A stretch of 64,000 nt of DNA from Paludibacteraceae bacterium. GTDB taxonomy: Bacteria; Bacteroidota; Bacteroidia; Bacteroidales; Paludibacteraceae. The translations under genes were made by a program, and so were the position numbers. The notes under the pieces are model-generated. The model saw nothing but the letters and a program-made list of their open reading frames with translations. It searched no databases and had not been told where the DNA came from. The stretch spans positions 16,107 through 80,106 of the forward strand of contig JAFYWK010000059.1 of NCBI GenBank assembly GCA_017558065.1, in the 5' to 3' direction. Shown here one piece after another: positions 46,275-61,905 of this stretch. Numbering within the stretch: position 1 is the first letter of the stretch; each line of letters begins with the position of its first letter.

Positions 46275-47516
46275 TTAGTTTGCTGATGCTTGTGGTAATG
46301 GTTCACAATAAGTTTTGTTCACAACCCTATCACGAAACTTCTGTCGATTTGGGAAATGACGAGATATATTCTGTATAATGTCATTATAATTATCGTTACT
46401 ACCATATTGATAGAAAAATGGCTTTATAGAAACGCAGTTGTCATGTTCAAACAATGTATTGAGCAATGTTCGATCTGAGTTTCCGCAGGCATGTCCCATG
46501 ATATAGATCTGAAATTTATCACTATTAGCAAACTGTAGTAATTCACGATATTTGCTTTTCTCTAGATATCTGTGGGATTTAATATTTTTCAGATAGCGAT
46601 TATCATCCAGATCTGATAAATCCATATAGTTTTTATCCATCTCATCTCCATAACCAAATATCATGCTTTCAGGCTCATCCAATGTGCCATGAATATGAAT
46701 AACCGAAGCTATCTTTTGGTCTTCTAGAACATATTGATCAGCTATATTGGTGTAGTTAAAATTAACCAATAGTATCTTTTCGGGCAAGGTCACAAATTTA
46801 TAATCTCGCTGCATGTAATGACCAAAGTCATCCTTATACGAAATCCTCAACATCTCTAAATCATAATTCTTAAGTATGCCTATCTTTTGATACTTCTCTA
46901 GAAGATTCAAAATGTGGATTTTTGCACATCTATCATTAAAATATCTTGTACTCTCTCTTGTTGATTCTATAGCAATATCCTGTAGTTTTATCGGTTCATA
47001 GATTTTCTCTTTGATGGTATTGTTAATTTCTCGAGCACTATTTTCTTCCACATCTTTTAGATATTCGCACAATTTGTTGGTTAATGCCTGAAGTTGGATA
47101 TTCAGTTCTTCTACTGTAATCGTTGAGTGTTCTTTTCTCGACTCTTTAAGCAAGTTATAATATGTACGTTCAATATCAACCCATTTCTTCTCCGCAATAT
47201 TCTTCATTATTTCCTCTAAAAACGCAGTTTGTTCTATTTCGAAATCTCCACTTCTAGAAAGTAAATCAATTAATTTATCGCCTGACCAATTAACTGCCTC
47301 GCCCAAAGAAGCACCATATTGAAAATAATAAAGGAAACCCGATGCTCTTCGAGGTAATAATTGAACCGTAATCAAACCATCATTAATAAATGTTTGATTA
47401 GTATGAAGTATTGTTTCTTTTAGTTGTTCCCAATACCAATTGATAAAATCTGCATAGCTTGTTTTTAAGCCATGTGCGAGGTCAAAGCCATTTCCTATAA
47501 GTACAATTCTATTCAT
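46275..47516 (-). CDS. AbiH-family abortive infection protein
   Basis: A 413-residue protein with the AbiH start MNRIVLIGNGFDLAHGLKTSY, then LLVNFNYTN, VIHIHGTLDEPESMIFGYGDEM and FQIYIMGHACGNSDRTLL, which are the family blocks. AbiH acts as an abortive-infection protein in lactococci; its mechanism is not known to me. It is the last gene of the long AT-rich operon, 31 bases after the small membrane protein, and the next transcript downstream has its own promoter, so it is likely part of the same defence locus. Confidence 0.92.
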   Translation of the reverse strand: MNRIVLIGNGFDLAHGLKTSYADFINWYWEQLKETILHTNQTFINDGLITVQLLPRRASGFLYYFQYGASLGEAVNWSGDKLIDLLSRSGDFEIEQTAFLEEIMKNIAEKKWVDIERTYYNLLKESRKEHSTITVEELNIQLQALTNKLCEYLKDVEENSAREINNTIKEKIYEPIKLQDIAIESTRESTRYFNDRCAKIHILNLLEKYQKIGILKNYDLEMLRISYKDDFGHYMQRDYKFVTLPEKILLVNFNYTNIADQYVLEDQKIASVIHIHGTLDEPESMIFGYGDEMDKNYMDLSDLDDNRYLKNIKSHRYLEKSKYRELLQFANSDKFQIYIMGHACGNSDRTLLNTLFEHDNCVSIKPFFYQYGSNDNYNDIIQNISRHFPNRQKFRDRVVNKTYCEPLPQASAN

Positions 47517-47547
47517 GGTTAAGAGCCGAAGGGGGATTATTTCTTAT

Positions 47548-47757
47548 TTATTCTCTCGTTTCGTTATGAACTTCTTCAAACATTTCATCCTGTACTTTTC
47601 TGAGTTTTTTATTGTGTGGTTCGTCTTGGCAAGCAATATTGCGTGACCCATAATATGAAATTCGCCTTTTCCATACTCTGCATATGGTGTAAACCAGCGC
47701 AACGCAAAAGATGATGCTTACAGCTACTAGTAATATATTGGATAATATATTATTCAT
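47548..47757 (-). CDS. small single-pass membrane protein (69 aa)
   Basis: One hydrophobic helix (residues about 5-27, ILSNILLVAVSIIFCVALVY) is followed by a basic segment (CRVWKRRISYYG) and a charged C-terminal tail, so the tail should be cytoplasmic. It is set between the 231-residue orphan (36-base gap) and abiH (31-base gap). A small membrane protein in a defence operon may be an effector or anchor, but the sequence shows no specific family. The Met start is the only good one. Confidence 0.65.
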   Translation of the reverse strand: MNNILSNILLVAVSIIFCVALVYTICRVWKRRISYYGSRNIACQDEPHNKKLRKVQDEMFEEVHNETRE

Positions 47758-47793
47758 TTTACCACATGTAATTGTGTGTCGAATGGGGGGGGA

Positions 47794-48489
47794 TTATAAC
47801 TCATCAGGGAGTTCTGAATTATCAACCCTCTTGCTTATTGGCTCTATTTTCTGTCCAATTCTGGCACGTTTTTGTTTTGGTTGTGGAACTTCTTCCTCAA
47901 TTCTCTGCAAAAAATCATTGGGTTCATCAAGCGATTCAGGTTGCTCCTCAAGTGATTCATCTTCTAAATCGAAAGATAAAAATTCCTCAAGAAAAGCAGT
48001 TGGCTTGTAATAATGATTAGGGTTGTCAATTAGTTTATCCTCCATGTAGTGAAGTCCCCAATTGATATATTCTTCCATAGTGCGCATAAGAGCATCGACT
48101 GCGCTACGTACAGTGATTAAACCTTTATCTAGATCTATCAGATTTATATCTGTTTTAGCAACCAATGCTATAAATATAAACTCTCTAAGTTTAGGATATG
48201 CCTTTCGTCCTTTTACGGAATCAATATTACCCCAATATTGAATAGCTTGACCAAGAGTTTTAGTTTTTGTACTATCTTCATTGAGTTTCTTTCTCTGGTT
48301 ATGATATAATCCTATGAAGAAAGAAATTATCAACATTTCATATCCTGCTCCAAATAATTTTCCTCTAGCAGAACCTAAACTTGTAACTCCTTTACCATAG
48401 TCGGTAAATTTTTCAACAATATTGTCTTTGTAGCGAATTTCAAAATATGGAGTTCTTTTCGCCCATGCATCATATAATTTCTCTGTCAT
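47794..48489 (-). CDS. orphan protein of the defence operon (231 aa)
   Basis: The N-terminal 130 residues hold a conserved-looking motif GSARGKLFGAGYEMLIISFFIGLYHNQRKKL, given by its core GKLFGAGYEMLII, then helical segments with a KGRKAYPKLREFIFIALVAKTD block. Residues about 165-231 are acidic and low in complexity. I do not recognise a named family; position next to a DndD-like ATPase makes a DndE-like accessory role possible but the DndE motifs are not seen. It is placed 3 bases after the SMC gene, so translation is probably coupled. Confidence 0.7.
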   Translation of the reverse strand: MTEKLYDAWAKRTPYFEIRYKDNIVEKFTDYGKGVTSLGSARGKLFGAGYEMLIISFFIGLYHNQRKKLNEDSTKTKTLGQAIQYWGNIDSVKGRKAYPKLREFIFIALVAKTDINLIDLDKGLITVRSAVDALMRTMEEYINWGLHYMEDKLIDNPNHYYKPTAFLEEFLSFDLEDESLEEQPESLDEPNDFLQRIEEEVPQPKQKRARIGQKIEPISKRVDNSELPDEL

Positions 48490-48492
48490 AAC

Positions 48493-50664
48493 TTATTTCT
48501 TTTTAGTGATTACAGTTCTGATTGTTGATAAGTCATTCACATCGTATCCAGGTGCTTTCTGGATTCTATAAACTGAACATGATAGTTGTTCTATCTTTTC
48601 TTCGTCTAAATGTCGTTCCTTGGTATCACGATTGTACAATAGCAAATCTTTCGTAAAGATAACACATTGCTTATCTATCTGATCTATGATATTATAAAAC
48701 ACATCTTCCTTAAATTCACCAAATGAAGAAGTAGGTGCATCAAAGATGAGTGGATAGTCTTCTTCACGTTTTAATGTGGTGATATTAGAAATTGCAAAAA
48801 GGACAGACATGTACATCGTTGTTCTTTGCGCTCCGCCTGGATTCGATATAAGGGTATCATCTGAGCTATATAGACTCACTCTTGCAGAGCCATCAGCTGT
48901 CCTTTTGATTTTAACAATACCATGAAAATCTCCATCATTCAAAAGTTGCAAATACTTATTCGCCTCATTTTGCAACATCTCCAGGAACTCAGTCACATTG
49001 TTTTCTTTTGCGTGCTCAACAGCTCTTAAAATCTTGTCAAGGACTATATGCACTCTTTGATAAACTTTGACAATACCATTAGTAGGTACTATTTGTGCTT
49101 GTTCATTTTTGATTTCAGCTTTTTCTTCTTCGTATTTAGCCAATTTACCTTTAAGTCCCTCTAATTCAACCTCTGCTCTCTTGCTACTCTCAGACAAACC
49201 TTTATAGTCCTTGAAGCCTTTTTCTAGCATATCCTCTGATAAGTTAGAATACTGAATCAACAGATGTGTTTTGTCATCCTCTGCCTCCTGCAAGTCTTTC
49301 TTTAATTGTTCTACCTCCTCACTTCTTGAACGAATAAAAGCAAGTCTATCGATAATTACATTTTTAAGTTTCGAGATTTCTTCTTCTATATCGCCGCTAA
49401 CCTGTACGCTTTTGGTATGCAATTCATTGATATATTCATTGATAAATAGTGGCTTATACTCTTCTTCCTGTTTGCGTCTTTTAGCTTCTTGAGAAATATG
49501 ATCGAGATAATTTCGGAGACGTTGAACCATATATTCGTATGCTTCAGAACCTTTGGGTGCAGGTCGTCCGCACACTTTACATACTTCATCTTTTATCATC
49601 TCTTCCATAGTTCCCTTATCAGGTAAGTTCCATGGAAGTGGAGCTATGCCATTGGCAAGATGTTGCAGTTCTGCATAAGCTTCTTGCTTTCCTTGCTCTT
49701 TAGAGCGTCTTTGGTCTTCTTCTTTTTGCAATCTTCTTTTTTCTTGACTAAATGCAGACGCTTTTTTCTGATATTCAGCTAAAATAGAAGGGAAACAACG
49801 CAAGACCCACATATCATCCAGCAATAAAGCATTATAATTAACATCAACATGAACTTGTTTTTGGTTAATTAAATTCTTTTTGCTGTTAATTCTTTGCTTA
49901 ATATCATTCAATTGCTCACACGCTTCTTGATTGTCCTCTAAAATCCTTAGTTGTGACTCAAAATCTAAGACTGCTTGCTCCCTGCGTTTAATATCATCTT
50001 CTGTATCACGAATTTTAGTTTCTACGGAGTTTAACTTTCTATCAAGTTCACTTGTCTTCTCGCCTTGTTTTTTATCTTTCTTTAACTCTTGTCGAACTAA
50101 CTTATCTGACTCCTGTTCGCAATGAGAAGCAACATCGACCAACTCGTCGAATTGTTTGATGCCAGAGAAAGTATCAACAAGTGTTTTTAACGCTGTACTA
50201 TTATCAAATACATTTAAGTCACTCTCACCTTTGAATAAGCAATAGCGACGCAAAACGGAGTCGAAACAAGATTCCAGCAAATTCTTTCCAGGCATTTTAG
50301 ACCTCTCTGTTCCAGTTACAATGTATCCATAGAACGAAAAGTCTCTTGTTGGCGCGGACTTGTCAGAGATTTTTTCAAAAGTAAATTTCTTGCAAATTTC
50401 TTTTTCTCCATTATGTTCAAACAATAATGAAACAGAAACTTCATCTGTTTCGTGAATCGACATTTCGGCTTTGCGCATAGCAGAAATATGCGCTTCTGGT
50501 TTGCTTTCAACACTTGTGTCAAAAAGCCATTCTAGAGCTTCGAAAAATGTAGTTTTTCCATCACCATTATCGCCAATAACTAAGGTTAGTCCAGGCGAAA
50601 ATTCAAACACATTTTCACCATAGTAACTTCGGAAGTTCTTTATTATAATCTTATTAAGTTTCAT
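48493..50664 (-). CDS. SMC/Rad50-like ATPase (DndD-like)
   Basis: 723 residues. Seen: the start IIIKNFRSYYGENVFEF, Walker A GDNGDGKTT at residues 31-39, long coiled-coil arms (about 185-330 and 380-560), a CKVCGRP zinc-hook-like motif with Cys362 and Cys365 in the middle of the arms, the ABC signature region SNPGGAQRTTMYMSVLF and Walker B YPLIFDAPTSSF. Such proteins act with nucleases or with phosphorothioation complexes (DndD). It overlaps the 77-residue gene upstream by 4 bases. DndD and Rad50/SbcC assignments cannot be separated by eye. Confidence 0.88.
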   Translation of the reverse strand: MKLNKIIIKNFRSYYGENVFEFSPGLTLVIGDNGDGKTTFFEALEWLFDTSVESKPEAHISAMRKAEMSIHETDEVSVSLLFEHNGEKEICKKFTFEKISDKSAPTRDFSFYGYIVTGTERSKMPGKNLLESCFDSVLRRYCLFKGESDLNVFDNSTALKTLVDTFSGIKQFDELVDVASHCEQESDKLVRQELKKDKKQGEKTSELDRKLNSVETKIRDTEDDIKRREQAVLDFESQLRILEDNQEACEQLNDIKQRINSKKNLINQKQVHVDVNYNALLLDDMWVLRCFPSILAEYQKKASAFSQEKRRLQKEEDQRRSKEQGKQEAYAELQHLANGIAPLPWNLPDKGTMEEMIKDEVCKVCGRPAPKGSEAYEYMVQRLRNYLDHISQEAKRRKQEEEYKPLFINEYINELHTKSVQVSGDIEEEISKLKNVIIDRLAFIRSRSEEVEQLKKDLQEAEDDKTHLLIQYSNLSEDMLEKGFKDYKGLSESSKRAEVELEGLKGKLAKYEEEKAEIKNEQAQIVPTNGIVKVYQRVHIVLDKILRAVEHAKENNVTEFLEMLQNEANKYLQLLNDGDFHGIVKIKRTADGSARVSLYSSDDTLISNPGGAQRTTMYMSVLFAISNITTLKREEDYPLIFDAPTSSFGEFKEDVFYNIIDQIDKQCVIFTKDLLLYNRDTKERHLDEEKIEQLSCSVYRIQKAPGYDVNDLSTIRTVITKKK

Positions 50665-50894
50665 AGCATTTCCTTTAAGTAACTTGATACTTGATTATAT
50701 ATTTCTTTGGGTGTTTGTTTCGCTTGCGTACACTCAATGAGCATAGCAACCGATTTAATCACATGATTTTCGGATAGCAAGGCATCATCAATGGTTTCAA
50801 CCTCACTGAGGTCATAATTTCCTAATTCCATCAATTTAGGATCAGATAGGACTTTTTGGAGAATTTTATCTCCGTTGGATAAATAGTTAGCCAT
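50661..50894 (-). CDS. small helical protein of the defence operon (77 aa)
   Basis: A short, acidic, helical protein (DKILQKVLSDPKLMELGNYD, SEVETIDDALLSENHVIKSVAM, QTPKEIYNQVSSYLKEML) with no membrane segment. The stop overlaps the start of the SMC ATPase gene by 4 bases, and the gene starts 9 bases after the helicase gene. It could be a partner subunit of the SMC ATPase. No family recognised. Confidence 0.7.
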   Translation of the reverse strand: MANYLSNGDKILQKVLSDPKLMELGNYDLSEVETIDDALLSENHVIKSVAMLIECTQAKQTPKEIYNQVSSYLKEML

Positions 50895-50903
50895 GTTGGG
50901 TGT

Positions 50904-53174
50904 TTAACTAAAAAGTGATATTTGGTAATAATTTAATACATCATCCAGAGTTTTTAGAGTTTCATTACTATTTTCTGACAGCAATGCAAAATCTCTTACT
51001 CGCTTAATTTCAGTTTCTACGAGGCTCTTCTCAATTTCAAAACAATCTTCACTAATAGAGCCTTCGTCTGGAATAACTATGAGGTCGTGAATGATAGCAC
51101 GCTTTTTATCCTTGTGCAATCTCAACACACGACCACGGCGTTGAATGAATTGACGAGGATTGCCAGTACTTGCGCAGAATATTGCTAACTCGCTTCTTGG
51201 AACATCAACACCTTCGTCTAGACATTTCATGGATGTTAAGACATCTAGATTTCCCTCTGCAAAGTCTTTTAGCATACTATCTCGCTCTTTTGACTCCGAC
51301 GTAAACTGCTTAACTGTTATGTGAGGGTCTAGATCCCTAACGATTGCAGTGTATTCATTGATTAAGTGTAGTGACTCCGCATCGTCCGCGATAGACTCTC
51401 TTGTATCGAAAATATCAGCTGTTTCATCAGGTGTATTTCCTTCTGGAACATAAACCAATGTGTATTTCAAAGAATGGTATTTCTCCAAATGTTTTTGAAG
51501 AATCTCCTTGAAAACATCCTTCTTATTTACTGCTTTGTGAATAATCTGTTTACGGATTAGTAAGTATCTTTTGAGTTTTTCTTGGCTAATCTCATCATCA
51601 AAATTAGCTATCTTCGCTATTTTTTTTGATAGTTCGATATAGCTATACATTTCGTCAACCGTAAGACGAACAATATGCGGATAATATCTATACTTACATA
51701 AGGCAGGTGGCTCATTGTGTATTGCCATATCCATAGAATACTCAAAAGTATATTCCTCATCACACCCAAAGAAGGTCATTAATTTTCTATTACCAGCATC
51801 ATCAAATTGACGTTCAGGAGTCGCAGACAAGCCAATACGACGAAGATATTTTATACGATCTAAACGTTGAGCAATTAAGCGGCTGCCCATATTATGTGCC
51901 TCGTCAGCAATGAGTAATAGATTTCTCCTTGACAATGCGTTCAAGTCTGAAAATATACCAGGACGAATAAAAGAGGAATATGTAGAAATAATTACATATG
52001 ACACAGTATTGTTAGGGTCGGACAACTCAATCATCTTTAAATTATCAATAACAGCTTGCCATCCCTTGTATTTAGAGCACACTTTTGTGATGTTTGTAAA
52101 ATTGAATTTCAAACATTCTTTTTCCCATTGCTCTACAAGCGTAATAGTAGGTACTAAAATTATCGCTTTATAATATTGGTATCTTTTGTATATCTGCAAT
52201 AAACAATTGAGCGAAGTAATCGTTTTACCAGTACCAGTAGCCATCGCGAATAGCCCTTTTTGGGTAACTTTCCAGCGGTTGAATGCATCTACTTGATATT
52301 CACGAGGACCTGATGGATAAGGGAATGATGGTTCTTTAAATGTGGATGTAGGAATTTCTTGTTTGGCATCCAATCTTTCAATTATCGCCTCAACTCTTTC
52401 CTTTGCTCTACTAAGTGCTTGAATAGCAGATTTAGAGACAAAAACTTTAGTTTGCCTTTTGATGATCTCAGTCTCGTTCCTTAATAGTTCTTCTAAAGAC
52501 TTATCAGTAAAGTTTTTCGTAATTTTAGTTTGGATATCAGAAACATTCTTATATAAAACCGAGTCATCTTCTTCTTGGAAAATCCGTTCAAAATCTTCCT
52601 TTATTGCTTGAACCTTATCACTCTCTAGTTCATTATCCCAACCACAAGAAACTGAAATACTTTCTATATTCTCTAAAAGTGCTGTTCTCGAAAAATTACA
52701 TGATCCATCAAAGCATACTTCATTTACTCTATCGTAGAATACTCCAGCTTTAGTATGAGAGATACCTATACCACTCTTTGGAGATATGACTTTTATTTCT
52801 ATCTTATTATTACGGATTAACCAAGCAATACAATCAAAGAAATGTCTATCTCTTTCGCTTAGTGTATCTTTAATTTGATGGATATTAGTTAAATCAAAAT
52901 ATGGCAAATCATCGGTTGCTGTTCCTTTCTGAATGGCAGCCTTATCTTCTTCGCTCAATATATCATTGATGATTAAGCGCATCTTGCCGCCATTATATAG
53001 GAATGTAGCAAATCCGTTTGCTAAAACACTAATAGCCGATGTGGAGAAAAATCCCAACATCAGATCAAATCTATAAGCGTTGCACAAACAATCTGAAAAG
53101 AAACCAACAGGTTCCCATTCTGTTCGGGATTTATACCGCCTATGCTTGGGCCATATGATATTGGATTTAAGCAT
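50904..53174 (-). CDS. PLD-nuclease-like/SF2 helicase fusion
   Basis: 756 residues. The N-terminal 200 residues form a phospholipase-D-type domain with ISHTKAG (His140, Lys142) and DGSCNFSRTAL, i.e. the HxK plus Asn arrangement of one half-site. From about residue 285 comes a superfamily 2 helicase: PREYQVDAF, MATGTGKTITS (Walker A), LVPTITLVEQW, IADEAHNMG (DEAH), LSATPER, and in the second RecA domain LTSMKCLDEGVDVP and QRRGRVLRLH. PLD-helicase fusions are common in defence operons, where they degrade or unwind invading DNA. It begins at the stop codon of the PIN gene (1-base overlap). Confidence 0.93.
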   Translation of the reverse strand: MLKSNIIWPKHRRYKSRTEWEPVGFFSDCLCNAYRFDLMLGFFSTSAISVLANGFATFLYNGGKMRLIINDILSEEDKAAIQKGTATDDLPYFDLTNIHQIKDTLSERDRHFFDCIAWLIRNNKIEIKVISPKSGIGISHTKAGVFYDRVNEVCFDGSCNFSRTALLENIESISVSCGWDNELESDKVQAIKEDFERIFQEEDDSVLYKNVSDIQTKITKNFTDKSLEELLRNETEIIKRQTKVFVSKSAIQALSRAKERVEAIIERLDAKQEIPTSTFKEPSFPYPSGPREYQVDAFNRWKVTQKGLFAMATGTGKTITSLNCLLQIYKRYQYYKAIILVPTITLVEQWEKECLKFNFTNITKVCSKYKGWQAVIDNLKMIELSDPNNTVSYVIISTYSSFIRPGIFSDLNALSRRNLLLIADEAHNMGSRLIAQRLDRIKYLRRIGLSATPERQFDDAGNRKLMTFFGCDEEYTFEYSMDMAIHNEPPALCKYRYYPHIVRLTVDEMYSYIELSKKIAKIANFDDEISQEKLKRYLLIRKQIIHKAVNKKDVFKEILQKHLEKYHSLKYTLVYVPEGNTPDETADIFDTRESIADDAESLHLINEYTAIVRDLDPHITVKQFTSESKERDSMLKDFAEGNLDVLTSMKCLDEGVDVPRSELAIFCASTGNPRQFIQRRGRVLRLHKDKKRAIIHDLIVIPDEGSISEDCFEIEKSLVETEIKRVRDFALLSENSNETLKTLDDVLNYYQISLFS

Positions 53175-54004
53175 TACGATTTCTTGTATATTGTGTGCTT
53201 ACGAGTGTAGTTAATGATGTTATGAAGTTTTTTTGCGACACCTGCATCAGATTTAAGATTTGAATAAGTTGCTAAGAGGTTACATATTTCTTTGTATTTA
53301 TCTTTATTTGTGTGAAAAAATTCTATTCCAGCATTAAGTTCATCAAAATTTACATCTTTGAGACCTATTTCTAATTTATGTAGATTGTCGTACAACATTT
53401 GATCTCTTGGACTTTTATGTATCCAATGTTCTTTATTTTCACTTACCTTGTTAAATAATGTTTTTATAGGTGTTGCAAATTCTGAATACAAATCACGTAG
53501 ATATTTTTTTAATCTTTCCCATTTAAAATCAGTATTCCCCCAATATAAAAACAAAAGTAAATCGACCGTATCTCCAATTGTTCCTATTTGTTGAAAACTA
53601 AAATAATTAGAAAAAGTTTCCTTTGCAGGATAATCATCTGTATAAAAATAAACTCTACATCCATTCTCCCTACATAAGTACAAACTTAATAAAGTTGAGT
53701 ACAATTCTCCATTCTCTTTGTGATAACTACAAAAAGAACTTATGTTGCCAATATATTTTTCTTTAAAATTATCATCTATATCTCTAATATATTTGGCAAA
53801 TGTAGGAATTAGAGGATTGATATAATCTTTTTGCGATTCTGTAAATTCTTTTTGATTAATTGTGTGATATGCTTCGTGATATACTTGTTGACAAATATTA
53901 ATATCCAATTTTATCAACAAATTATACAAAAACTTATCTTCATCTATCCTAAGAAGATTAATAATTGTACATGTATCCAAAATAACCGGAATAATCATTG
54001 CCAA
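53174..54004 (-). CDS. PIN-like nuclease domain protein
   Basis: 276 residues starting MAMIIPVILDTCTIINLLRI, with the PIN acidic residues Asp10, Glu44 (YHEAYH), Glu100 (ENGELYSTLL) and Asp123/Asp124 (YFYTDDYPAK). These would bind metal for RNA or DNA cleavage. The C-terminal 140 residues are helical and Lys-rich. It overlaps the AAA gene by 10 bases and the helicase by 1, which indicates strict co-expression. It is likely the nuclease effector or processing subunit; a toxin of toxin-antitoxin type is less likely, since no antitoxin gene pairs with it. Confidence 0.82.
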   Translation of the reverse strand: MAMIIPVILDTCTIINLLRIDEDKFLYNLLIKLDINICQQVYHEAYHTINQKEFTESQKDYINPLIPTFAKYIRDIDDNFKEKYIGNISSFCSYHKENGELYSTLLSLYLCRENGCRVYFYTDDYPAKETFSNYFSFQQIGTIGDTVDLLLFLYWGNTDFKWERLKKYLRDLYSEFATPIKTLFNKVSENKEHWIHKSPRDQMLYDNLHKLEIGLKDVNFDELNAGIEFFHTNKDKYKEICNLLATYSNLKSDAGVAKKLHNIINYTRKHTIYKKS

Positions 54005-55113
54005 ATGATAATTTCATTTATTAACGAAGCAAAATTTGCATTATTTATTTCATCATAACCTTCATATGCAGCAATTTCAATTAGTCTAGAAAAAGTCTCA
54101 TTGTATTTGCGCAGAGATGCATTACCTAATTTTTGGATGACTGCATCAATAACCTCCAAGCTAAAAGGCGCATATAGATTATCGGTTGTAGTAATGCGAT
54201 ATGCCGGATTATTGAGCAATTCTTTTAAATATGTCTTTAATTCGCTTGTATTTGGAATTGGGAATTCGATTCTGTCTATTATACGTGACTTTACGGCTTC
54301 ATGTAAGAACTCTCCTAAATCAGCAACACTAATCATAGCTGATAATGTCAAATTAAGAAACATCAATAGGTTGTTAGGACATTTGTCTATTAAGGTTCTA
54401 ACAAAATTATTAACATTACTAATATTTGCGTTATTAAGTAATGAGATGTCTTCAAACTCATCAATCCATAGTATAATGCATGAATGTACTCTTTTATCAT
54501 AGGTTAATATTGAAAATAAAATAGATATAAACTCTATGTAATCGTAATCGGTCGAAAGTTTACGTATTATACCTTTTGCTTGATATTTTTTATAATCTTC
54601 TGTTCCATATAAGAATGACTTAAACTCTAGACCTTCTGGATCAGTTGTAAACAAATTATGTGTTTGATCAAACATTGCATAAAAAACCTTATGCATAAAT
54701 GTATTATCTGTAACACTCATCAGAATATCTTGAATGTTGAGGTGTTTTTCTTCAACATCTCTTCGAAGTCTAGCGACATCTAGTTTATCCACGATTTGTG
54801 TGAATAACTCTTTTACTGGTTCTTTACTTTTTGGAAATCTCAAATCAATAGAGTAAGGAATCGTATTTTCAGCTGCAATATCTTTTAATACCTGCTGTGT
54901 ACTAAAATATCTTAAAGCATGAGTCTTACCACTACCATATTCTCCCCAATTTAAAACAAGACTAGAATTGGGGATATTAATAGAATATTTTATTCTCGTT
55001 TCTATCTGTTTTTTTAGTTCAGGAAAACCCGCCCAAATAATTTCAGTTACATTTGTTGACGGTGTGATTCTAAAAGGATTACCTTTCAGATTTAATTTAT
55101 CAAATTTATTCAT
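53995..55113 (-). CDS. AAA+ ATPase (Orc/Cdc6-like or ExeA-like)
   Basis: 372 residues from MNKFDKLNLKGNPFRITPS; an upstream ATG at 55143 would overlap the previous gene. Seen: Walker A WGEYGSGKTHALRYF (about residues 56-70), Walker B SCIILWIDEFEDISLL, a sensor-like NLLMFLNLTLSA, and an arginine-finger region AVKSRIIDRIEFPIPN. The C-terminal 90 residues look like a helical lid. The type resembles AAA proteins that load or gate effectors in defence operons. Function with the PIN protein is inferred from the 10-base overlap. Confidence 0.85.
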   Translation of the reverse strand: MNKFDKLNLKGNPFRITPSTNVTEIIWAGFPELKKQIETRIKYSINIPNSSLVLNWGEYGSGKTHALRYFSTQQVLKDIAAENTIPYSIDLRFPKSKEPVKELFTQIVDKLDVARLRRDVEEKHLNIQDILMSVTDNTFMHKVFYAMFDQTHNLFTTDPEGLEFKSFLYGTEDYKKYQAKGIIRKLSTDYDYIEFISILFSILTYDKRVHSCIILWIDEFEDISLLNNANISNVNNFVRTLIDKCPNNLLMFLNLTLSAMISVADLGEFLHEAVKSRIIDRIEFPIPNTSELKTYLKELLNNPAYRITTTDNLYAPFSLEVIDAVIQKLGNASLRKYNETFSRLIEIAAYEGYDEINNANFASLINEIIIWQ

Positions 55114-55117
55114 AATT

Positions 55118-56731
55118 TTATTTTTTTTGTATATATCCATCATTATACTGATTTTGAAATTTAAATATATATTCGTAAAACTCTAATCCTAAGAAGAGTT
55201 CCTTGATATCAGCATTGTCAACCAATAGATTGTGATTATAATAAAGCATGTATTTAACATATTGAGCTAACTGAGAGAATGTTACTCTATTGGGCGCCAA
55301 TGTTTTAAATAACGTAAAAGCATTGTCTATATATTCTTTCACCAAATGTTTGTGAGTAGTTATGTCAAAAATTCCACAACAGCAATCAGTAATTGTATCA
55401 TACATTTTAATAAAATAGTTATTAATCTGCCATTGAGGAGATACTATTTTAGTCATACTAATATCATCCCATATTGTCAAATTAAAATATAAACGTTTGC
55501 CAATTGGTGTTAAACAGAATGAATTGCCATTAATACTAATGATGTTCATATCATAAAGCCAATTTATTCTTGGCATTATAATATGTTCTAAATATGTCAA
55601 AGATTTCTTCCAGTCTTTAATCTTCAAAATTTGAGCTCTTATAGAGTGCTTATTTATGAACGATATGTCTTCACGAGCAAAATAAATACAACATTGATTG
55701 AGTAATTCGGTTTGGAATATTGTTCGAATTTTGTCATATGAAATCTCTGATTCTTGATATAATAATCTCAAGATTGTCGATATGTACAGGTAATCTTCCA
55801 TTAATATTAATTCTAAGAAAAATGGAACATCGATGCTATTAAGTGTGAATATATTTTCTTCTATAATATTCACATGATCTGTAATAGCATTGTATACTTT
55901 ACCGACTTTTCCTAGCGTATAATATCCTGTTATTTTATTAAGGAATCCTAATTTTTCTGCTAGCTCAATATAAGGTTTTGCAGAAACGCCAGTTGAAGTT
56001 TTTTTTATTTCACCTTTATTATTTTTATAATTTTGTAAATATTCCTTATACTGAACACATAATGTCTCAAATTTGGAATAAATAATGGAAATAGGTATTT
56101 TATCAACATCAGAAAACATTGACAAAAGTAATTTTAAATATCCTAACCTTCTAACTTTAGTATTGGAAGGAAGAATTCGGATATCGTGATTGTCTATAGG
56201 TTCTCTATTAATATTGTAAAATGCAGGAACTCCAATTTGTTGTATATTGTGAAATAATGTTTCTGTGTGTGTTACCAAATCACTATTAAAAGAATTTTTA
56301 TTTACATACAACATAGACCCGTATTCCTTGACTTCAGGACAGCCTAGAAATTCTTCGTAAAAACAATGCTTCTTAGTTGTATATGACATAACAGAATTGG
56401 GGAATGTTTCGCAAAGATTGTTGGCGACATAATTTGTTATGTAAGAATAAGGTTTAGATATTTTTTTACCTTCATCTTCATCAACAAACTCCCCAACATA
56501 AATTCTTATAGATTGTATGTTAGAAAACTCTATTTTTATCAGTCTATTGGGGTCTAATTCATTCATATAAAATGGTATCTCTTCGGATTCATTATACAAG
56601 CAACCTAAATCAAACAAAGCAACAATAAACCAATACTCTTGAGGCATTTGAAACCAAAGTTCATTGGTGTCGACTCTAATATATGACTCACATTCACAAA
56701 CAGAGTATATGTGCTGTAAAACATTTTTCAT
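55118..56731 (-). CDS. large orphan protein of the defence operon (537 aa)
   Basis: I start at MKNVLQHIYSV (56731), 7 bases after the PAPS-reductase-like gene; a longer start at 56767 is possible. No catalytic motif is seen. The C-terminal half has repeated short helix-strand units with the look of winged-helix domains, e.g. KPYIELAEKLGFLNKITGYYTLGKVGKVY and WLYDMNIISINGNSFCLTPIGKRLYF, given by their cores LGFLNKITGYYTLG and MNIISINGNSFCLTPIG. This suggests DNA recognition. It ends 4 bases before the AAA gene. It may be the specificity factor of the system, but that is a guess. Confidence 0.7.
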   Translation of the reverse strand: MKNVLQHIYSVCECESYIRVDTNELWFQMPQEYWFIVALFDLGCLYNESEEIPFYMNELDPNRLIKIEFSNIQSIRIYVGEFVDEDEGKKISKPYSYITNYVANNLCETFPNSVMSYTTKKHCFYEEFLGCPEVKEYGSMLYVNKNSFNSDLVTHTETLFHNIQQIGVPAFYNINREPIDNHDIRILPSNTKVRRLGYLKLLLSMFSDVDKIPISIIYSKFETLCVQYKEYLQNYKNNKGEIKKTSTGVSAKPYIELAEKLGFLNKITGYYTLGKVGKVYNAITDHVNIIEENIFTLNSIDVPFFLELILMEDYLYISTILRLLYQESEISYDKIRTIFQTELLNQCCIYFAREDISFINKHSIRAQILKIKDWKKSLTYLEHIIMPRINWLYDMNIISINGNSFCLTPIGKRLYFNLTIWDDISMTKIVSPQWQINNYFIKMYDTITDCCCGIFDITTHKHLVKEYIDNAFTLFKTLAPNRVTFSQLAQYVKYMLYYNHNLLVDNADIKELFLGLEFYEYIFKFQNQYNDGYIQKK

Positions 56732-56738: not shown

Positions 56739-57845
56739 TCATATAAAACAACTTGCGCAGAAGGCATCTTCTTCTGATGAGCCTAATGTATCTATTAATT
56801 TACAATTCTGTTCTTTTGTACGAGCTGCCTCTTGTTTTTTGATGGCATCTAACTTAATCTGTCGAACTCGCTCAGGCTTGATCAAATCTGCTAAGCTTTC
56901 ATTTTGATTCCAAGTATAGCCATCTTTCTCAAACTCCATCGCTTTTGCATAAAGGTCAGGATGCTGTTCATACAACCAAATCCACTCTATCTTTTGTTGG
57001 AAGAAGCAGAAATAGCAGCCAGAGCGGCTACGGCTATAATAGCCAATCTTTCCATCAACTTCGAATGGTACTGGATTATAATATGCAGGAACACCTACTC
57101 CACTCTCCTCAAGGATTCTAAAAATATCAGCCTTAACTAACACATCATCATTGTCAATCAAAGGGAACTCATCCAACATGCCTATTGGACAGTCTGTTCC
57201 TTTGAGGCTTTCAAATACAACCTTATTGAAAAGCTTCACATCCAAATCCAGCAGAGCATTAGCTTTTTTGCCATAGAAAAAATCTTTCGTGATTGGCATG
57301 GCAGCAACTTCTAACACTTTATCAGCGATGGATTCAGGAGTATATAACTTATACAACTCAACCAATTTGGAAAGATTGTCATTGTGGAGTACTTTGTGGA
57401 TGACATCAATGCTCCAAATATTCTTTCTAAAAGGAAAGATAGATTGTATGTTGGACTTAGTTGACACATATCCTTCACGGTCTTCATCTCCTCGGATACC
57501 GACGTACGAGATGGTTGGTATATCACCCACGAAGCGTTCCATCTCGGCCAGTTTCATCTTTTGCGTACACCATCTCGCTTGTGGTGATGGCAAATAGTTG
57601 CCAGAGGCTTTGAGGAAGTGTTCGAATGGCGTTGGTTCTGGACTGCCCTCTGCTGCACGAAGCTTGGTGATACCGCCAAGATATGTTTCAAGGCGGCTGA
57701 TGAGCAAATCAGTTTCAGCCAATTCGCACCCAGTATCTGAATTATAGTAAACTATATTCATGTGAGGGTACTTGTTTTTAAGATAGATTGCCAATGCAGC
57801 ACTATCCTTACCGCCTGATATACCTAATATATGTCTTACTTCCAT
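56739..57845 (-). CDS. PAPS-reductase/DndC-like ATP pyrophosphatase
   Basis: 368 residues starting MEVRHILGISGGKDS, with the PP-loop SGGKDS at residues 10-15, YYNSDTGCELAET, RWCTQKMK with Cys93, GIRGDEDREG and a SRSRSGCYFC motif with Cys277 and Cys280; a further CxxC (Cys363, Cys366) lies at the C-terminus. The RWCT and GCxxC cysteines resemble those that hold an iron-sulfur cluster in DndC, which activates DNA for phosphorothioation, and in BREX type 4 BrxP. No assimilatory-sulfate neighbours are present. Its stop and the orphan start are 7 bases apart, and its start overlaps the ATPase stop. Confidence 0.9.
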   Translation of the reverse strand: MEVRHILGISGGKDSAALAIYLKNKYPHMNIVYYNSDTGCELAETDLLISRLETYLGGITKLRAAEGSPEPTPFEHFLKASGNYLPSPQARWCTQKMKLAEMERFVGDIPTISYVGIRGDEDREGYVSTKSNIQSIFPFRKNIWSIDVIHKVLHNDNLSKLVELYKLYTPESIADKVLEVAAMPITKDFFYGKKANALLDLDVKLFNKVVFESLKGTDCPIGMLDEFPLIDNDDVLVKADIFRILEESGVGVPAYYNPVPFEVDGKIGYYSRSRSGCYFCFFQQKIEWIWLYEQHPDLYAKAMEFEKDGYTWNQNESLADLIKPERVRQIKLDAIKKQEAARTKEQNCKLIDTLGSSEEDAFCASCFI

Positions 57846-60800
57846 TATTTCATTTTATCATTTAGGAGACTTAAGAGGATGCAGATATCCATCTCGTTGT
57901 CACCTGTTAGTAAACTATTCAATTCAGAAACTTTTGATTTCGCTTCTGACTGTTTGGATTGTGGCAAGCGGTATGTTTGTTTGCTGACGCTTGTTCCTCG
58001 ATTAGAAACGAAATCAATACTAAATGCCTCATCGTTGGAATCAATCTCGATTTCGGAGAGTGATGTGAAGTGATCTAATTCAGAGAATAAGTGCAAAAGT
58101 TCTTTGATGAACAATGCTTCTTCGGAATCCTTGACAATCTCAATTTTCTTATCGAAAACAACAAAACCAATCTTCGAATAAAACTCTGTTTTGTTATCAG
58201 AGGACGCCAAAATACGGTCAAGGAAAGAGCGTGATTTAGGAGTTAGCAAATCTTTGTTTATACTCTTGTATCGCTTTTCAAGAAATTCCTTGTACTCATC
58301 AAAGTCAGAAGTCAGACCAAGATGATGGCATACATTATTCTCAATCCGACAGACAAAATTATAGAAACAGTTGTTTAATTCTTGACACGCTTTCTTAATC
58401 AATACAAGATATTGCTCAAGGAACTCGTCCTTATTCAAATCATTATAACCAAATGCGGTAGGAAGGTCTTCAAGGAATGTCTTACTTGGATCAGTTGCAC
58501 CTAACAAGATGTCGCGGAATTTGGCAGTATAATAGTTATCGAACTTATATGTATGTTTCGCGTAATCATTAAGATTTTTGATATATTGCAAGAATGGTTT
58601 TGCCACACCTATTAGCGAATCTCCTTGGATAGAGATAGTATCATCCTTGTGGAAAAATTGGCGGTATTTCTTGAAGAAATCAGCTTTTACACTAGACACA
58701 TTATAAGACTTGATAGAGAATTCATTAGGGTGTTTTTGCAAAATTTCAAATACTTCTTTAGTAATAGACAGAACGAATCTATCTCCCTCATACAGAGCAA
58801 AGTCTTGTTGCTTGATATAGAGGAATATTGGGAGCCAAAAATCAATAACACCTTGTTTCAGTTTGAATGGTGCTGATTTGAGGATCTTAATCAATTCGCT
58901 TAATTTTCTAGGTTTGTCAGTAGAACTTTGAACAAACTTGCAGCATTCATCCCATAAGTCAGTCACATTGCAAGTAGGTGCATCAAAAATGTATTGTCCA
59001 TCAGTATCTCTGTGATGAATACCTGTTTCACGTAACAATGTGTAGTAAATACTTTTTTCTGGTGGATAAGCAGATTTGCTAAATCCTAAATCTTCTTGGT
59101 CAGAGTTTGTAAGAATTGCATCTAACAGATTGACACGAGCCGCAGATATGACAGAATTTACCTTATGGCGATTGAATAATTCATTGCGTAATATTGGGGT
59201 TTTGTGATAGATTGTATCGGCAATTTTAGATAATTGTTTATTCAAATCTTTTTGACTACAGATTACAACCTCTTTGGCTTGGAAGCACCATAATACACTC
59301 GTTCCATCAAATAGACTTTCATTAAGTGCTTTATTCAACAATTCTACTTCATAATTCAAAATATTCTTTACTTCATTTGCAGCAACTCTATCTTCGAGGA
59401 CAACATTCTCAAGCAGATATTTCAATTTAAATACTTCATGCAAGTGGGAAATAATATCATCAGTGTTGAGAAAATACGCATATAAAATGGCTTTACCTTG
59501 TTCGTTAGATGCTGCCTTTACATCAGTGAACGATGCATAAGTAGGCAAAACCAGATTAACAAAACCATCTATATCACCTTGAGGATCAGTTGTGATGGGA
59601 GTGTTGGATAAATGATATTGAAAGTATCGAGGAGTTCCAGTCGTGTAGTAAGATTTAATAGCAAGCATGATGTTAGCATTAACATAATCTTGCACATTTT
59701 CAACAGTTAGAGTAGGACGTGGAACGATAGTAGCTGCCTTATATAATTCGCTCTCGATATCTATGTCAGTTCCCTCAAATAAGATGTATTGTGACTTGTA
59801 GGTCGCATAACGAATTATCTTGTGCGATTTAAGTAATTCAATATACCTTTCAGGATTCTTTATGTCTAGAGCAAATTTGCAATAAGTAGTTAAGAACTCG
59901 TCGTCAATAGTAACATTTTTGCAGAACAGATTAAGCAGGCCAATAGATTTGACGATAGCTAATGCTCCATCTATGAGATTATCAGCAAATATGCCACTTT
60001 CTACTCGTTCGATAGCTAGTCGCATCGAACGCCAATCCATAGAATCAGCATTCGCTTCGGATAAGAAAGAATAGAAATTGTAAACTACATAATCGTATAC
60101 TTCTGCGAGGTTGTATGTTCGGTAGTCTGTAACCTTAAAAGCACTAATTGAATACCTATCAGTAGCCATCAAGAACGAGAATAATGTTCGCTCGTTTTGA
60201 CCATAACGCTGCATGGAGTGTATCAAGCATGTAGAAGAAATAGGATCTAAAGGATACAGACTCATAGAGGTGCTTAATGCTAAATCGTATGAAACGATTT
60301 TATTCTTCTTAGCAAGACAATATAATGCACGAAGATTCTCTTTGGCTATGTCAGTAGGAGTAGCAATCTTCTTCTTCAGTTGGCTTGCAGTCAGATAGAG
60401 CAATTGCTCAATAGGTTCAACGAATACCAGTTCCTTTAGACGACCTTTAATCTTCATCCATTCATTACGTTGTGCATCATTCAGTTTGTAAGAGTATGTG
60501 CCAAAATTTTGATGAAGGGTGGTCAAAAGAATGATATTTCTGTGCTTCGCATTAACATACTCCGCCAATTTTTGCAAGAAATACAATTCTTTCTCAGGAT
60601 TGTTTGCAGCTGCATGTTCGAGAACTTTACCACATTCATCTACTACAATAAACAAAAATTTATTTTGGCGTTTGAGGGCATTGTACTTTTGATTTAGCGC
60701 TTCAATAACTTCCTCTGTTGTTGCAAATGTATCTATACCAAGTTTCTTAGCTAAAAGCGTAGAGAGTGATTCATAATCACCCACAATATTGATAAACTCA

Positions 60801-61048
60801 AACTTACTACAACCTAGCACGTCCTTCCTTTGAACCAAGACATTAGTATCTTTAAGTAAATCGCGTTGTAGAGCAGCTATAAAACTAGATTTGCCCGTCC
60901 CATAGTTACCCACAATTGAAAAAGAATGAAGACCATCATTGAAACTTGAAATGATGCTTCCCCACACCGTTTGAGAGTTGGATGTTACTACATACTGAAA
61001 ATCATCGCTCAAACCTTGTTCTATATTGACAGATGGAATATAACTCAT
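57845..61048 (-). CDS. giant P-loop ATPase of the defence operon (BrxC-like in size)
   Basis: 1067 residues. The N-terminal ATPase has Walker A VGNYGTGKSSF at residues 46-55 and Walker B FLFIVVDECGK with Asp137/Glu138, followed by a long helical body without further motifs that I recognise. The size, N-terminal ATPase and context resemble BrxC/PglY of BREX systems and the ATPases found with DUF4007, but no specific match can be claimed. It overlaps DUF4007 by 4 bases and the PAPS-reductase-like gene by 1 base. Expected to act with these two as one complex. Confidence 0.85.
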   Translation of the reverse strand: MSYIPSVNIEQGLSDDFQYVVTSNSQTVWGSIISSFNDGLHSFSIVGNYGTGKSSFIAALQRDLLKDTNVLVQRKDVLGCSKFEFINIVGDYESLSTLLAKKLGIDTFATTEEVIEALNQKYNALKRQNKFLFIVVDECGKVLEHAAANNPEKELYFLQKLAEYVNAKHRNIILLTTLHQNFGTYSYKLNDAQRNEWMKIKGRLKELVFVEPIEQLLYLTASQLKKKIATPTDIAKENLRALYCLAKKNKIVSYDLALSTSMSLYPLDPISSTCLIHSMQRYGQNERTLFSFLMATDRYSISAFKVTDYRTYNLAEVYDYVVYNFYSFLSEANADSMDWRSMRLAIERVESGIFADNLIDGALAIVKSIGLLNLFCKNVTIDDEFLTTYCKFALDIKNPERYIELLKSHKIIRYATYKSQYILFEGTDIDIESELYKAATIVPRPTLTVENVQDYVNANIMLAIKSYYTTGTPRYFQYHLSNTPITTDPQGDIDGFVNLVLPTYASFTDVKAASNEQGKAILYAYFLNTDDIISHLHEVFKLKYLLENVVLEDRVAANEVKNILNYEVELLNKALNESLFDGTSVLWCFQAKEVVICSQKDLNKQLSKIADTIYHKTPILRNELFNRHKVNSVISAARVNLLDAILTNSDQEDLGFSKSAYPPEKSIYYTLLRETGIHHRDTDGQYIFDAPTCNVTDLWDECCKFVQSSTDKPRKLSELIKILKSAPFKLKQGVIDFWLPIFLYIKQQDFALYEGDRFVLSITKEVFEILQKHPNEFSIKSYNVSSVKADFFKKYRQFFHKDDTISIQGDSLIGVAKPFLQYIKNLNDYAKHTYKFDNYYTAKFRDILLGATDPSKTFLEDLPTAFGYNDLNKDEFLEQYLVLIKKACQELNNCFYNFVCRIENNVCHHLGLTSDFDEYKEFLEKRYKSINKDLLTPKSRSFLDRILASSDNKTEFYSKIGFVVFDKKIEIVKDSEEALFIKELLHLFSELDHFTSLSEIEIDSNDEAFSIDFVSNRGTSVSKQTYRLPQSKQSEAKSKVSELNSLLTGDNEMDICILLSLLNDKMK

Positions 61049-61905
61049 TGATTGTAGTATTGTCTTAAGATTTTATATTTATCAAGTTTAGCACCAGTAA
61101 ACTGGATATTTCTTACACCACTTGTTTCAGAATAATGAATTTGTTTGGGATATTTTGTCTCTATCTTTCTGACGACTTCAATAAACTTGGTAAATGGCAT
61201 ACCAAAGGTGAGTGCGAGTTCTTGGATTTTATCCAAAGAAATAGTCGTCTCATCACCTGCTGTATCAAGAATAGCAAATAATACAATCAAGTAATCTACA
61301 GCGTTTTCGGCAATCTCATTAAAGACATAGACTTCTCCTTTGTCTAATCTACGCAAAAGATTTAGACTAATCATAATGCCTGTAAAATCTTCTACGCTAG
61401 ATAGGGATTTAGGTGCGAGATAATTATGAAGAAGAACACCAATATCTTTCTTAACAGTATTCTCGTTATACACATTCTTTTGCTCTGGTACATTGCAACG
61501 ACGCTTGATAAAGTTTTGTAGTAAATCTCTATCAAATTCTTTTTTCTCACGTTGATACTCAACAAACAAAAGATGATAAATGCTGGATATCTTGTTTGAA
61601 ACAAGCAAATAATGAAGTAACCAAAGAGTGTTAGAATCCTCTAGAAATGGATCTCCTTCATTATGCAAAACAATATTTGCTATATCTGTAGGTATATCTT
61701 CTACTGTCAATCCGAACGCTTTTAACCAAAAGCGAATAGATGCAACCATATTCTTTCCTACACCTAATTTAACAACCGCATCTTCTTGATTGAAAGTATT
61801 ACCTTCATAGCGAAAGTCATACCCTTTTTTCAACCACAAAGATTTGCAGTAGAATGTTTCGTGCCCTGAAAAACAATATCTTTTTACTGTTGCCATTATA
61901 CTCAT
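61045..61905 (-). CDS. DUF4007 family protein
   Basis: 286 residues from MSIMATVKRYCFSG; the ATG nine bases on is an equal alternative, and any longer start would cross the promoter. Family blocks are clear: FSGHETFYCKSLWLKKGYDF, FNQEDAVVKLGVGKNMVASI, RFWLKAFGL. DUF4007 proteins are known from genomic surveys to sit next to PAPS-reductase-family genes in presumed phage-defence loci, but I know of no biochemical role. The C-terminal half is winged-helix-like (LDKIQELALTFGMPFTKFIEVV). It is the first gene of the operon, so a DNA-binding or autoregulatory role is possible. Confidence 0.92.
   Translation of the reverse strand: MSIMATVKRYCFSGHETFYCKSLWLKKGYDFRYEGNTFNQEDAVVKLGVGKNMVASIRFWLKAFGLTVEDIPTDIANIVLHNEGDPFLEDSNTLWLLHYLLVSNKISSIYHLLFVEYQREKKEFDRDLLQNFIKRRCNVPEQKNVYNENTVKKDIGVLLHNYLAPKSLSSVEDFTGIMISLNLLRRLDKGEVYVFNEIAENAVDYLIVLFAILDTAGDETTISLDKIQELALTFGMPFTKFIEVVRKIETKYPKQIHYSETSGVRNIQFTGAKLDKYKILRQYYNQ

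What the first reader, a model, noticed from the sequence alone, without database searches (positions are those of the whole stretch)
46275..61905. Candidate undescribed defence system built around DUF4007, a giant ATPase and a DndC-like protein
Seen: twelve minus-strand genes packed with overlaps of 1-10 bases or gaps of mostly under 40 bases, read from one promoter at 61933-61963. The products combine DUF4007, a 1067-residue P-loop ATPase, a DndC/BrxP-like PAPS-reductase-family protein, an orphan, an AAA ATPase, a PIN nuclease, a PLD-SF2 helicase, an SMC ATPase and AbiH. Known: Dnd phosphorothioation uses DndC with DndA/IscS, DndD and DndE; BREX type 4 pairs a PAPS-reductase-like BrxP with BrxC, PglZ and BrxL. 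DndB, DndE, PglZ, BrxL and a methyltransferase are all missing here. Inference: a sulfur-related DNA modification or sensing module (DUF4007, ATPase, DndC-like) joined to a degradation module (helicase, SMC, PIN), with AbiH as a last line.
Basis: partly seen in the sequence, partly recalled or inferred. Interest (0 to 1): 0.88.

Follow-up and report, generated by a model that had tools for sequence, protein, structure and literature searches.

The report
Sulfur-marking DNA defence with extra cassette
Most of this operon is two already described parts, a machine predicted to put sulfur into the cell's own DNA backbone and a kit that blocks unmarked phage DNA, but between them sits a three-gene cassette, missing from the catalogues searched, whose ATPase and probable nuclease turn up beside three kinds of DNA-sulfur system.

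Summary
In detail: twelve tightly packed minus-strand genes behind one Bacteroidota-type promoter at 61933-61964. "Undescribed system" is only partly right. DUF4007, the giant ATPase and the DndC-like protein are SspB, SspC, SspD (phosphorothioation). The PLD-helicase, 77-aa, SMC-like and 231-aa genes match PbeABCD in order, PbeB and PbeD by position only. AbiH and the 69-aa ORF are not conserved with the rest. New is the middle trio: a 549-aa orphan, a BrxD-like AAA ATPase and a PIN-like protein. In 17 of 20 relatives from a GTDB scan it follows sspBCD; in one (Desulfonema) ATPase and PIN follow BREX type 4; two are cut upstream by contig ends. One divergent trio lies between a sulfur-binding-domain HNH nuclease and a DndE-like gene. 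It is exchangeable: homology between loci with and without it stops at the sspD stop codon and resumes just inside sspA; 20 of 20 other ssp loci sampled lack it. Most likely it is an auxiliary nuclease tied to the phosphorothioate state; that function is inferred.

The parts
61933..61964 (-). Bacteroidota-type promoter (TTTG-N20-TATCTTTG)
   Evidence: consensus recalled
61045..61905 (-). SspB (DUF4007; DNA-nicking component in the studied Ssp system); ORF extends to 62040 but homologs start near 61905
   Evidence: PADLOC SspB 8.5e-85, Pfam DUF4007 6e-68, alignment A11; nicking from PMC8092258 section 4
57845..61048 (-). SspC, 1067-aa P-loop ATPase, related to BrxC
   Evidence: PADLOC SspC E=0, BrxC 1e-59; Walker A GNYGTGKS
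56739..57845 (-). SspD, PAPS-reductase-like sulfur transferase
   Evidence: PADLOC SspD 7e-84; SGGKDS motif
55118..56731 (-). Trio gene 1: orphan (ORF to 56767), read here as a multi-wHTH adaptor (inference)
   Evidence: no family above chance in PADLOC, Pfam, NCBIfam; 18-member alignment A9; 1 of 18 members hits a winged HTH model at E=0.007
53995..55113 (-). Trio gene 2: BrxD/TniB-like AAA ATPase (ORF to 55143)
   Evidence: Pfam BrxC_BrxD 2.6e-4 and TniB 5.6e-4, both below cut-off; Walker A and B conserved
53174..54004 (-). Trio gene 3: PIN-like nuclease candidate
   Evidence: D10, E44, N98-G99-E100, D124 invariant in 21 of 21; hhalign to VapC-like PINs: global E=1e-4, prob 30; local E=0.002, prob 15
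50904..53174 (-). PbeA: PLD (HKD) domain plus SF2 helicase
   Evidence: PADLOC PbeA E=0; Pfam ResIII, Helicase_C, PLDc_2 below cut-off; NCBIfam dnd_restrict_1 1e-111, below its cut-off
50661..50894 (-). PbeB by position and size (77 aa)
   Evidence: 45% identical 78-aa gene at the same place in L004; order as in PMC6459918
48493..50664 (-). PbeC: ABC/SMC-like ATPase with CxxC hook CKVC
   Evidence: PADLOC PbeC 1e-23, with LmuB 6e-22 nearly as good, so position decides; CKVCGR conserved with L004
47794..48489 (-). PbeD by position (231 aa; the last ~40 aa are not shared)
   Evidence: alignment A10, 8 members, 34-74% identity
47548..47757 (-). 69-aa ORF, not conserved with the operon
46275..47516 (-). 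AbiH gene, probably a separate neighbour
   Evidence: Pfam AbiH 1.4e-27; seen in 1 of 20 relatives, on the opposite strand

Best explanation
This is a phosphorothioate (PT) restriction-modification operon of the Ssp-Pbe combination that carries an extra three-gene cassette. SspB, SspC and SspD, fed with sulfur by a host cysteine desulfurase, mark the cell's own DNA with PT (by homology). PbeABCD, next in the operon, blocks propagation of unmarked invader DNA and needs PT to do so (by homology to the tested haloarchaeal cassette). The orphan-AAA-PIN trio is a separate, swappable module that goes with PT systems of different kinds; most likely the orphan reads the DNA or PT state, the AAA ATPase is the ATP-driven switch or loader, and the PIN-like protein cuts nucleic acid (RNA as back-up or suicide effector, or unmarked DNA) when the mark or the main system fails. 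Shown here: gene identities, gene order, conservation, cassette exchange, purifying selection. Inferred: PT on this host's DNA, and every step of the trio's mechanism.
For: SspBCD, PbeA and PbeC profile matches and Pbe gene order. Trio after sspBCD in 17 of 20 GTDB relatives, two more cut upstream by contig ends. AAA-PIN after BrxP-BrxC-PglZ-BrxL in Desulfonema. Divergent orphan-PIN-AAA between an SBD-HNH nuclease (PDB SBDHga1, 1e-14) and a DndE-like protein (7x4e, 2.7e-8) in L123. The trio accompanies different main effectors: PbeA in 11 of 20, SspE in L018, DndG/DndH in L013, PDC-M62/Ptu-like genes in L021, a probable GHKL ATPase in L017, L023, L026. Exchange against a 135+212-aa pair between the sspD stop and sspA. 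Distance correlations: trio 0.78-0.85, SspBCD 0.59-0.78, across 0.51-0.66, 18 loci. dN/dS 0.07-0.22 for trio genes in three pairs. Other contents of the slot after sspD are deoxyribosyltransferase-, kinase-, exonuclease- and DndB-like genes, which fits an auxiliary-effector slot.
Against: No experiment and no predicted structure. The trio is absent from 20 of 20 other ssp loci in a 392-genome Bacteroidota sample, so SspBCD does not need it. The PIN assignment rests on motif conservation and weak profile scores, and the L123 PIN-like protein matches the trio family (2.5e-6) but not the VapC set (E 0.3-0.7); the orphan's wHTH character is a reading of the sequence. BREX 4 and Dnd links rest on one locus each, the Dnd one at a contig end; Desulfonema and Thiomargarita lack the orphan at the sensitivity used. 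More distant relatives of the ATPase sit in PT-free contexts. No SspA lies in the operon, and the only desulfurase found in the host genome looks like SufS (type recalled). In 9 loci SspD correlates more with PbeA (0.91) than with AAA (0.70).
Confidence: 0.66

Rival explanations
1. The trio is a full PT-dependent restriction module of its own, in the manner of SspFGH or DndFGH: it attacks unmodified DNA and is toxic when PT is lost.
For: Three genes with one ATPase next to sspBCD, as SspFGH (PMC8092258 section 5 part 1); linkage to PT modification genes.
Against: In 18 of 20 relatives another known or probable effector module lies nearby (not in L012 and L022); no FtsK/HerA-type translocase among the three; PIN proteins mostly cut RNA (recalled).
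Confidence: 0.25
2. The trio helps or regulates SspBCD modification (target choice, restraint) and is not an effector.
For: Follows sspD, often before the restriction genes; distant ATPase relatives sit after a tRNA-guanine transglycosylase-like gene in 4 of 4 haloarchaeal plasmid loci opened, of 12 records matched.
Against: Conserved PIN acids in 21 of 21; L068 has closely related SspBCD, SspA and PbeABCD (75-84% DNA identity) without the trio.
Confidence: 0.12
3. The trio is an unrelated defence-island neighbour caught in the operon.
For: Absent from 20 of 20 other ssp loci in the phylum sample; its genes evolve partly apart from SspBCD.
Against: Found after PT genes in all 18 scan loci where the upstream side is visible (17 ssp, 1 BREX 4); the position after sspD recurs in 17.
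Confidence: 0.1
4. One reading: one undescribed system of all twelve genes including AbiH.
For: Tight packing and one upstream promoter.
Against: Seven genes match named systems by profile or position; AbiH and the 69-aa ORF are not conserved with them.
Confidence: 0.03

Closest known systems
SspABCD-SspE / SspABCD-SspFGH (ssDNA phosphorothioation defence)
   Same: SspB, SspC, SspD in the same order, by profile
   Different: No SspE hit listed among the ten proteins scanned; the three extra genes hold no FtsK-like protein as SspH does; no SspA in the operon
DndCDEA-PbeABCD of haloarchaea (PMC6459918, sections 8 and 10 read)
   Same: PbeA-PbeB-PbeC-PbeD order and PbeA/PbeC domains
   Different: Paired with SspBCD instead of DndCDEA; PbeD 231 aa instead of 152
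BREX type 4 (BrxP, BrxC, PglZ, BrxL)
   Same: SspB/C/D are homologous to its DUF4007, BrxC and PAPS-reductase parts (PMC12839542 section 34); AAA-PIN pair follows it in L024
   Different: No PglZ or BrxL found here
Dnd PT systems with nuclease neighbours (PMC10853773; passages, sections 17 and 22)
   Same: PIN endoRNases at Dnd loci were noted there as probable suicide effectors (section 17)
   Different: The sections and passages I saw do not describe the orphan-AAA-PIN cassette or its place after sspD; supplements were not open to me

Membership tests
Ssp modification module | adjacent SspB (DUF4007), SspC ATPase, SspD sulfur transferase | tested here: met
Ssp modification module | cysteine desulfurase (SspA in the operon or a host IscS) | tested here: inconclusive
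   none in the operon; one desulfurase in the host genome, SufS-like by eye; assembly 94.5% complete
Ssp modification module | single-strand PT in host DNA (5'-CCA-3' in studied members) | not testable with these tools
   needs LC-MS/MS
PbeABCD | PbeA with PLD, ResIII and helicase C domains | tested here: met
   PADLOC PbeA E=0; Pfam ResIII 3e-25, Helicase_C 1e-13, PLDc_2 6e-5 (below its cut-off)
PbeABCD | order PbeA, small PbeB, AAA_23-type PbeC, small PbeD beside PT genes | tested here: met
   PbeB and PbeD by position and conservation only; PbeC profile score close to that of LmuB
PbeABCD | PbeD is a DndE cognate | tested here: inconclusive
   no Pfam DndE hit in 8 members, no PDB DndE hit; claim from PMC10853773 passages
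PbeABCD | PT-dependent block of virus propagation | not testable with these tools
   needs phage or virus challenge
SspFGH | SspH with FtsK/SpoIIIE-like C-terminus beside Walker-A SspF and SspG | tested here: not met
   no FtsK-like domain in the three proteins and no SspFGH hit listed; no direct alignment to SspFGH was made
BREX type 4 | PglZ and BrxL | tested here: not met
   no hit listed
Dnd (DndABCDE) | true DndC, DndD, DndE | tested here: not met
   DndC 2e-4 against SspD 7e-84; DndD 6.5e-13 for PbeC, below PbeC 1e-23; no DndE hit
PIN-domain nucleases (gene 3 of the trio) | PIN fold with conserved acids | tested here: inconclusive
   acids invariant in 21 of 21; no Pfam hit in the window protein, 3 PIN models in one member each, best 0.015; hhalign global E 1e-4 prob 30, local 0.002 prob 15; 18 of 20 shuffled controls E>=0.04, 2 of 20 spurious one-column scores; no PIN hit in PDB

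The most novel reading that the evidence does not exclude
Orphan-AAA-PIN is a portable effector cassette dedicated to the phosphorothioate mark itself and independent of which machinery writes it (Ssp, BREX 4 or Dnd), a further class of PT-linked effector beside DndFGH/SspFGH, SspE and Pbe, working by an ATPase-gated nuclease.
Probability: 0.35. Interest if true: 0.78.

Novelty: new variant of a known kind. Interest (0 to 1): 0.58.

Why it matters
In a published survey 2,211 of 2,678 sspBCD loci had neither SspE nor SspFGH (PMC8092258 section 9), and its authors ask whether more diverse restriction partners exist. This work names candidates in Bacteroidota: PbeABCD, a probable GHKL ATPase and other cassettes, and a slot after sspD whose contents are swapped between related loci. 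The trio is a concrete, testable new partner, seen with Ssp and, from one locus each, with BREX 4 and a Dnd-type system.

Tried and rejected
Rejected: one novel twelve-gene system (named modules); BREX type 4 membership (no PglZ, BrxL); AbiH as part of the system; SspFGH identity of the trio (no FtsK-type gene).

Led nowhere: PDB sequence searches with the PIN, AAA, orphan and PbeD profiles gave only chance-level hits or none; viral contigs and plasmids searched with the window AAA, L123 AAA, L123 orphan and window PIN gave nothing; plasmids with the L015 AAA gave two distant haloarchaeal hits. hhalign of the orphan against SspB gave no match. The A12 alignment (three genes assumed to be DndG by position) is 17-20% identical and two of its rows matched no DndG profile, so its comparison counts for nothing. 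ATPase relatives in L086-L088 lie in other contexts: HerA-like genes in L086 and L087, an N6-methyltransferase in L087, a BrxHI-like helicase in L088; so the ATPase family as a whole is not PT-specific. L124 is cut by a contig end and its next gene is oxidoreductase-like; in L125 the PIN match is a 127-aa fragment.

Dropped rows: of 22 SspD regions fetched besides the window, L077 and L078 had only a weak SspD and no SspB or SspC, leaving 20; L061, kept, shows SspC only in part and no SspB. For the tree, tips with SspC under 950 aa (L058, L061) were left out, giving 36.
Full report
The observation. Twelve minus-strand ORFs run from 61905 to 46275 with overlaps or short gaps, behind a Bacteroidota-type promoter at 61933-61964. 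The block is 29-36% GC per 2 kb, the rest of the window 40-54%. The host is a 2.4-Mb assembly in 83 contigs. It belongs to the order Bacteroidales by inference: G038, listed as same order, has the contig length of the record titled Bacteroidales bacterium STC_5. None of 36 same-genus genomes has the AAA gene.

Named parts. PADLOC gives SspB (8.5e-85), SspC (0), SspD (7e-84), PbeA (0) and PbeC (1e-23, with the Lamassu protein LmuB at 6e-22); Pfam gives DUF4007, ResIII, Helicase_C, PLDc_2 (below cut-off) and AAA_15/AAA_23. The published Pbe cassette is PbeA (PLD, ResIII, helicase), PbeB (66 aa), PbeC (AAA, pfam13476) and PbeD (152 aa); all four contribute to antiviral activity, which depends on PT (PMC6459918, sections 8 and 10). 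Here the order is 756, 77, 723 and 231 aa. The CKVC of PbeC fits the Zn-hook ABC ATPase described in PMC10853773 (passages). So the core is SspBCD with PbeABCD. The set SspBCD, SspA, PbeA, PbeC occurs in 4 of 20 other ssp loci of a 392-genome Bacteroidota sample (L068, L069, L071, L072). In print, the one paper holding both 'SspBCD' and 'Pbe' lists PbeABCD among restriction partners without describing this pair (listing, passages); abstracts name Pbe and Ssp side by side; PMC7464106 queried dnd or ssp genes together with pbe, and the passages I saw do not single out the pair. No SspA lies in the operon; the SspA profile finds one desulfurase in the host genome, SufS-like by eye.

The trio. Between SspD and PbeA lie a 549-aa orphan, a 382-aa AAA ATPase and a 276-aa PIN-like protein. 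PADLOC, Pfam and NCBIfam give nothing above chance for the orphan and the PIN-like protein, and for the ATPase only weak BrxD/TniB/IetA-type matches. A scan of GTDB species genomes (84,980 species) with a two-row ATPase alignment returned 20 loci; it starts from two short peptide patterns, so it undercounts. In 17 of 20, SspB-SspC-SspD-orphan-AAA-PIN stand in this order, with an extra gene between SspC and SspD in L011 and between SspD and orphan in L026; L022 and L025 are cut upstream by contig ends; L024 (Desulfonema) has BrxP-BrxC-PglZ-BrxL, a 172-aa gene, then AAA-PIN and no orphan. In the phylum sample 2 of 392 genomes matched the two-row alignment, the window and one weak case; in the order sample 5 of 344 matched at E<=1e-10: the window, two loci already known, and two divergent ones. 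One divergent locus, L123, has a sulfur-binding-domain HNH nuclease, then an orphan homolog (hhalign 8e-20 over its C-terminal two thirds), a PIN-like gene (2.5e-6 to A7, no match to the VapC set), the ATPase (6e-60), then a protein with a DndE match and a weak DptH match at the contig end. So the cassette occurs with Ssp, with BREX 4 (without orphan; one locus) and with what looks like a Dnd-type system (one locus). More distant ATPase relatives are not PT-bound: they sit beside HerA-like genes (L086, L087), a methyltransferase (L087) and a BrxHI-like helicase (L088), and after tRNA-guanine transglycosylase-like genes in 4 of 4 haloarchaeal plasmid loci opened, of 12 records matched.

Module behaviour. 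Neighbouring effectors vary: PbeA in 11 of 20 (inverted in L014 and L016, cut in L009 and L010), SspE in L018, DndG/DndH in L013, PDC-M62/Ptu-like genes in L021, a probable GHKL ATPase in L017, L023 and L026 (Pfam checked on L017 only, below cut-off), BREX 4 in L024, none recognised in L012 and L022. The trio is absent from 20 of 20 other ssp loci in the phylum sample at profile E<=1e-4. On an SspC+SspD tree of 36 tips the trio changes state 7 times (shuffled mean 12.3, minimum 6) and PbeAC 6 times (shuffled mean 10.9, minimum 6). L068, without trio, nests with L015/L019/L020; DNA homology of 75-84% runs to the sspD stop codon (to one base beyond it in L019), breaks, and resumes 12-27 bases inside sspA, with 3.7 kb of trio against a 1-kb gene pair. 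Pairwise-distance correlations separate a trio block (0.78-0.85) from an SspBCD block (0.59-0.78), across 0.51-0.66, 18 loci that are partly close relatives; within 9 loci SspD follows PbeA (0.91) more closely than the trio (0.66-0.70). dN/dS is 0.04-0.22 in all genes compared, so the trio is kept by selection; uneven dS (0.38 to 2.77 in one pair) suggests mosaic exchange.

Catalytic features. PIN-like: D10, E44, N98-G99-E100 and D124 invariant in 21 of 21. hhalign with 17 VapC-like PIN proteins gave global E=1e-4 at probability 30 and local E=0.002 at probability 15; unrelated local pairs gave 0.03-0.6; 18 of 20 column-shuffled controls gave E>=0.04 and two gave spurious one-column scores, so this is weak. 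ATPase: LWIDEFE in 19 of 19 and Walker A in 18 of 19 (L025 is cut by its contig end). SspD SGGKDS in 37 of 38; a CxxC somewhere in PbeC in 14 of 14; my Walker A pattern for PbeC matched 9 of 14, DEAH in PbeA 14 of 18 and my HKD pattern 8 of 18, so PLD catalysis is not shown for all.

Mechanism. By homology SspBCD marks host DNA and PbeABCD blocks unmarked DNA. Because the trio rides with several different effectors, is missing from a close relative of SspBCD-SspA-PbeABCD (L068), and shares its slot with other effector-like genes, I think it most likely a PT-linked auxiliary nuclease: orphan as reader, AAA as switch, PIN as blade. PIN and HEPN endoRNases beside Dnd and BREX loci have been proposed as back-up suicide effectors (PMC10853773 section 17; PMC12839542 section 35 part 1). 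A restriction role on unmarked DNA is the main rival. All this is inference.

Novelty. Ssp and Pbe are known; their combination with this cassette is a variant. The trio is not described in what I saw: sections 17 and 22 and passages of PMC10853773; section 34, part 1 of section 35 and passages of PMC12839542; sections 4, 9, 10 and part 1 of section 5 of PMC8092258; sections 8 and 10 of PMC6459918; passages of PMC7464106, PMC8053081 and PMC11931770. Nor did the listings of searches show a paper on it. Supplements could not be read; subscription papers and preprints are mostly not held.

Noticed in passing
L017:11723-14131, L023:200-2635, L026:12690-14900, L063:9137-11590, L067:7675-10098, L070:5222-7675, L073:6553-9006: A ~736-817-aa protein, with a weak GHKL/HSP90-type ATPase match in the one copy scanned with Pfam, recurs beside sspBCD; no PADLOC match in the two copies scanned. 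It may be an undescribed Ssp partner.
   Followed up: partly
L057, L059, L066, L074, L075, L076: Another recurrent cassette beside sspBCD: a ~514-549-aa gene (weak PbeA-like helicase similarity in four of the six), a ~606-661-aa and a ~304-348-aa gene.
   Followed up: no
L067, L068, L069, L072 downstream of sspD: Slot after sspD holds other pairs: a Ser/Thr kinase with a weak GmrSD-N match, a deoxyribosyltransferase-like gene, an RNase_T exonuclease, DndB with a weak GIY-YIG match; L073 has relatives of the L068 and L072 pairs.
   Followed up: partly
L013:11037-19513: DndH and DndG genes, with the neighbouring 566-aa gene DndF only by position, lie opposite to an SspBCD-trio operon.
   Followed up: no
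L126, L127, L129, L130: A distant relative of the ATPase follows a tRNA-guanine transglycosylase-like gene and a ~299-aa gene on haloarchaeal plasmids, with 7-deazaguanine synthesis genes nearby in L126 and L127.
   Followed up: partly
L026:15657-20292: Remains of BREX type 4 (BrxC fragment, PglZ in two ORFs, BrxL) about 3.6 kb after the trio.
   Followed up: no
L025:3918-6093: PbeC is split into two ORFs in this Phocaeicola contig.
   Followed up: no
window 42249-46158: Neighbours look like RhuM, ADP-ribosylglycohydrolase and Bro-N type genes (names recalled from the sequence, no profile search), fitting a mobile or defence island.
   Followed up: no
L011:4664-5668: A PDC-S05-type gene sits between SspC and SspD.
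   Followed up: no
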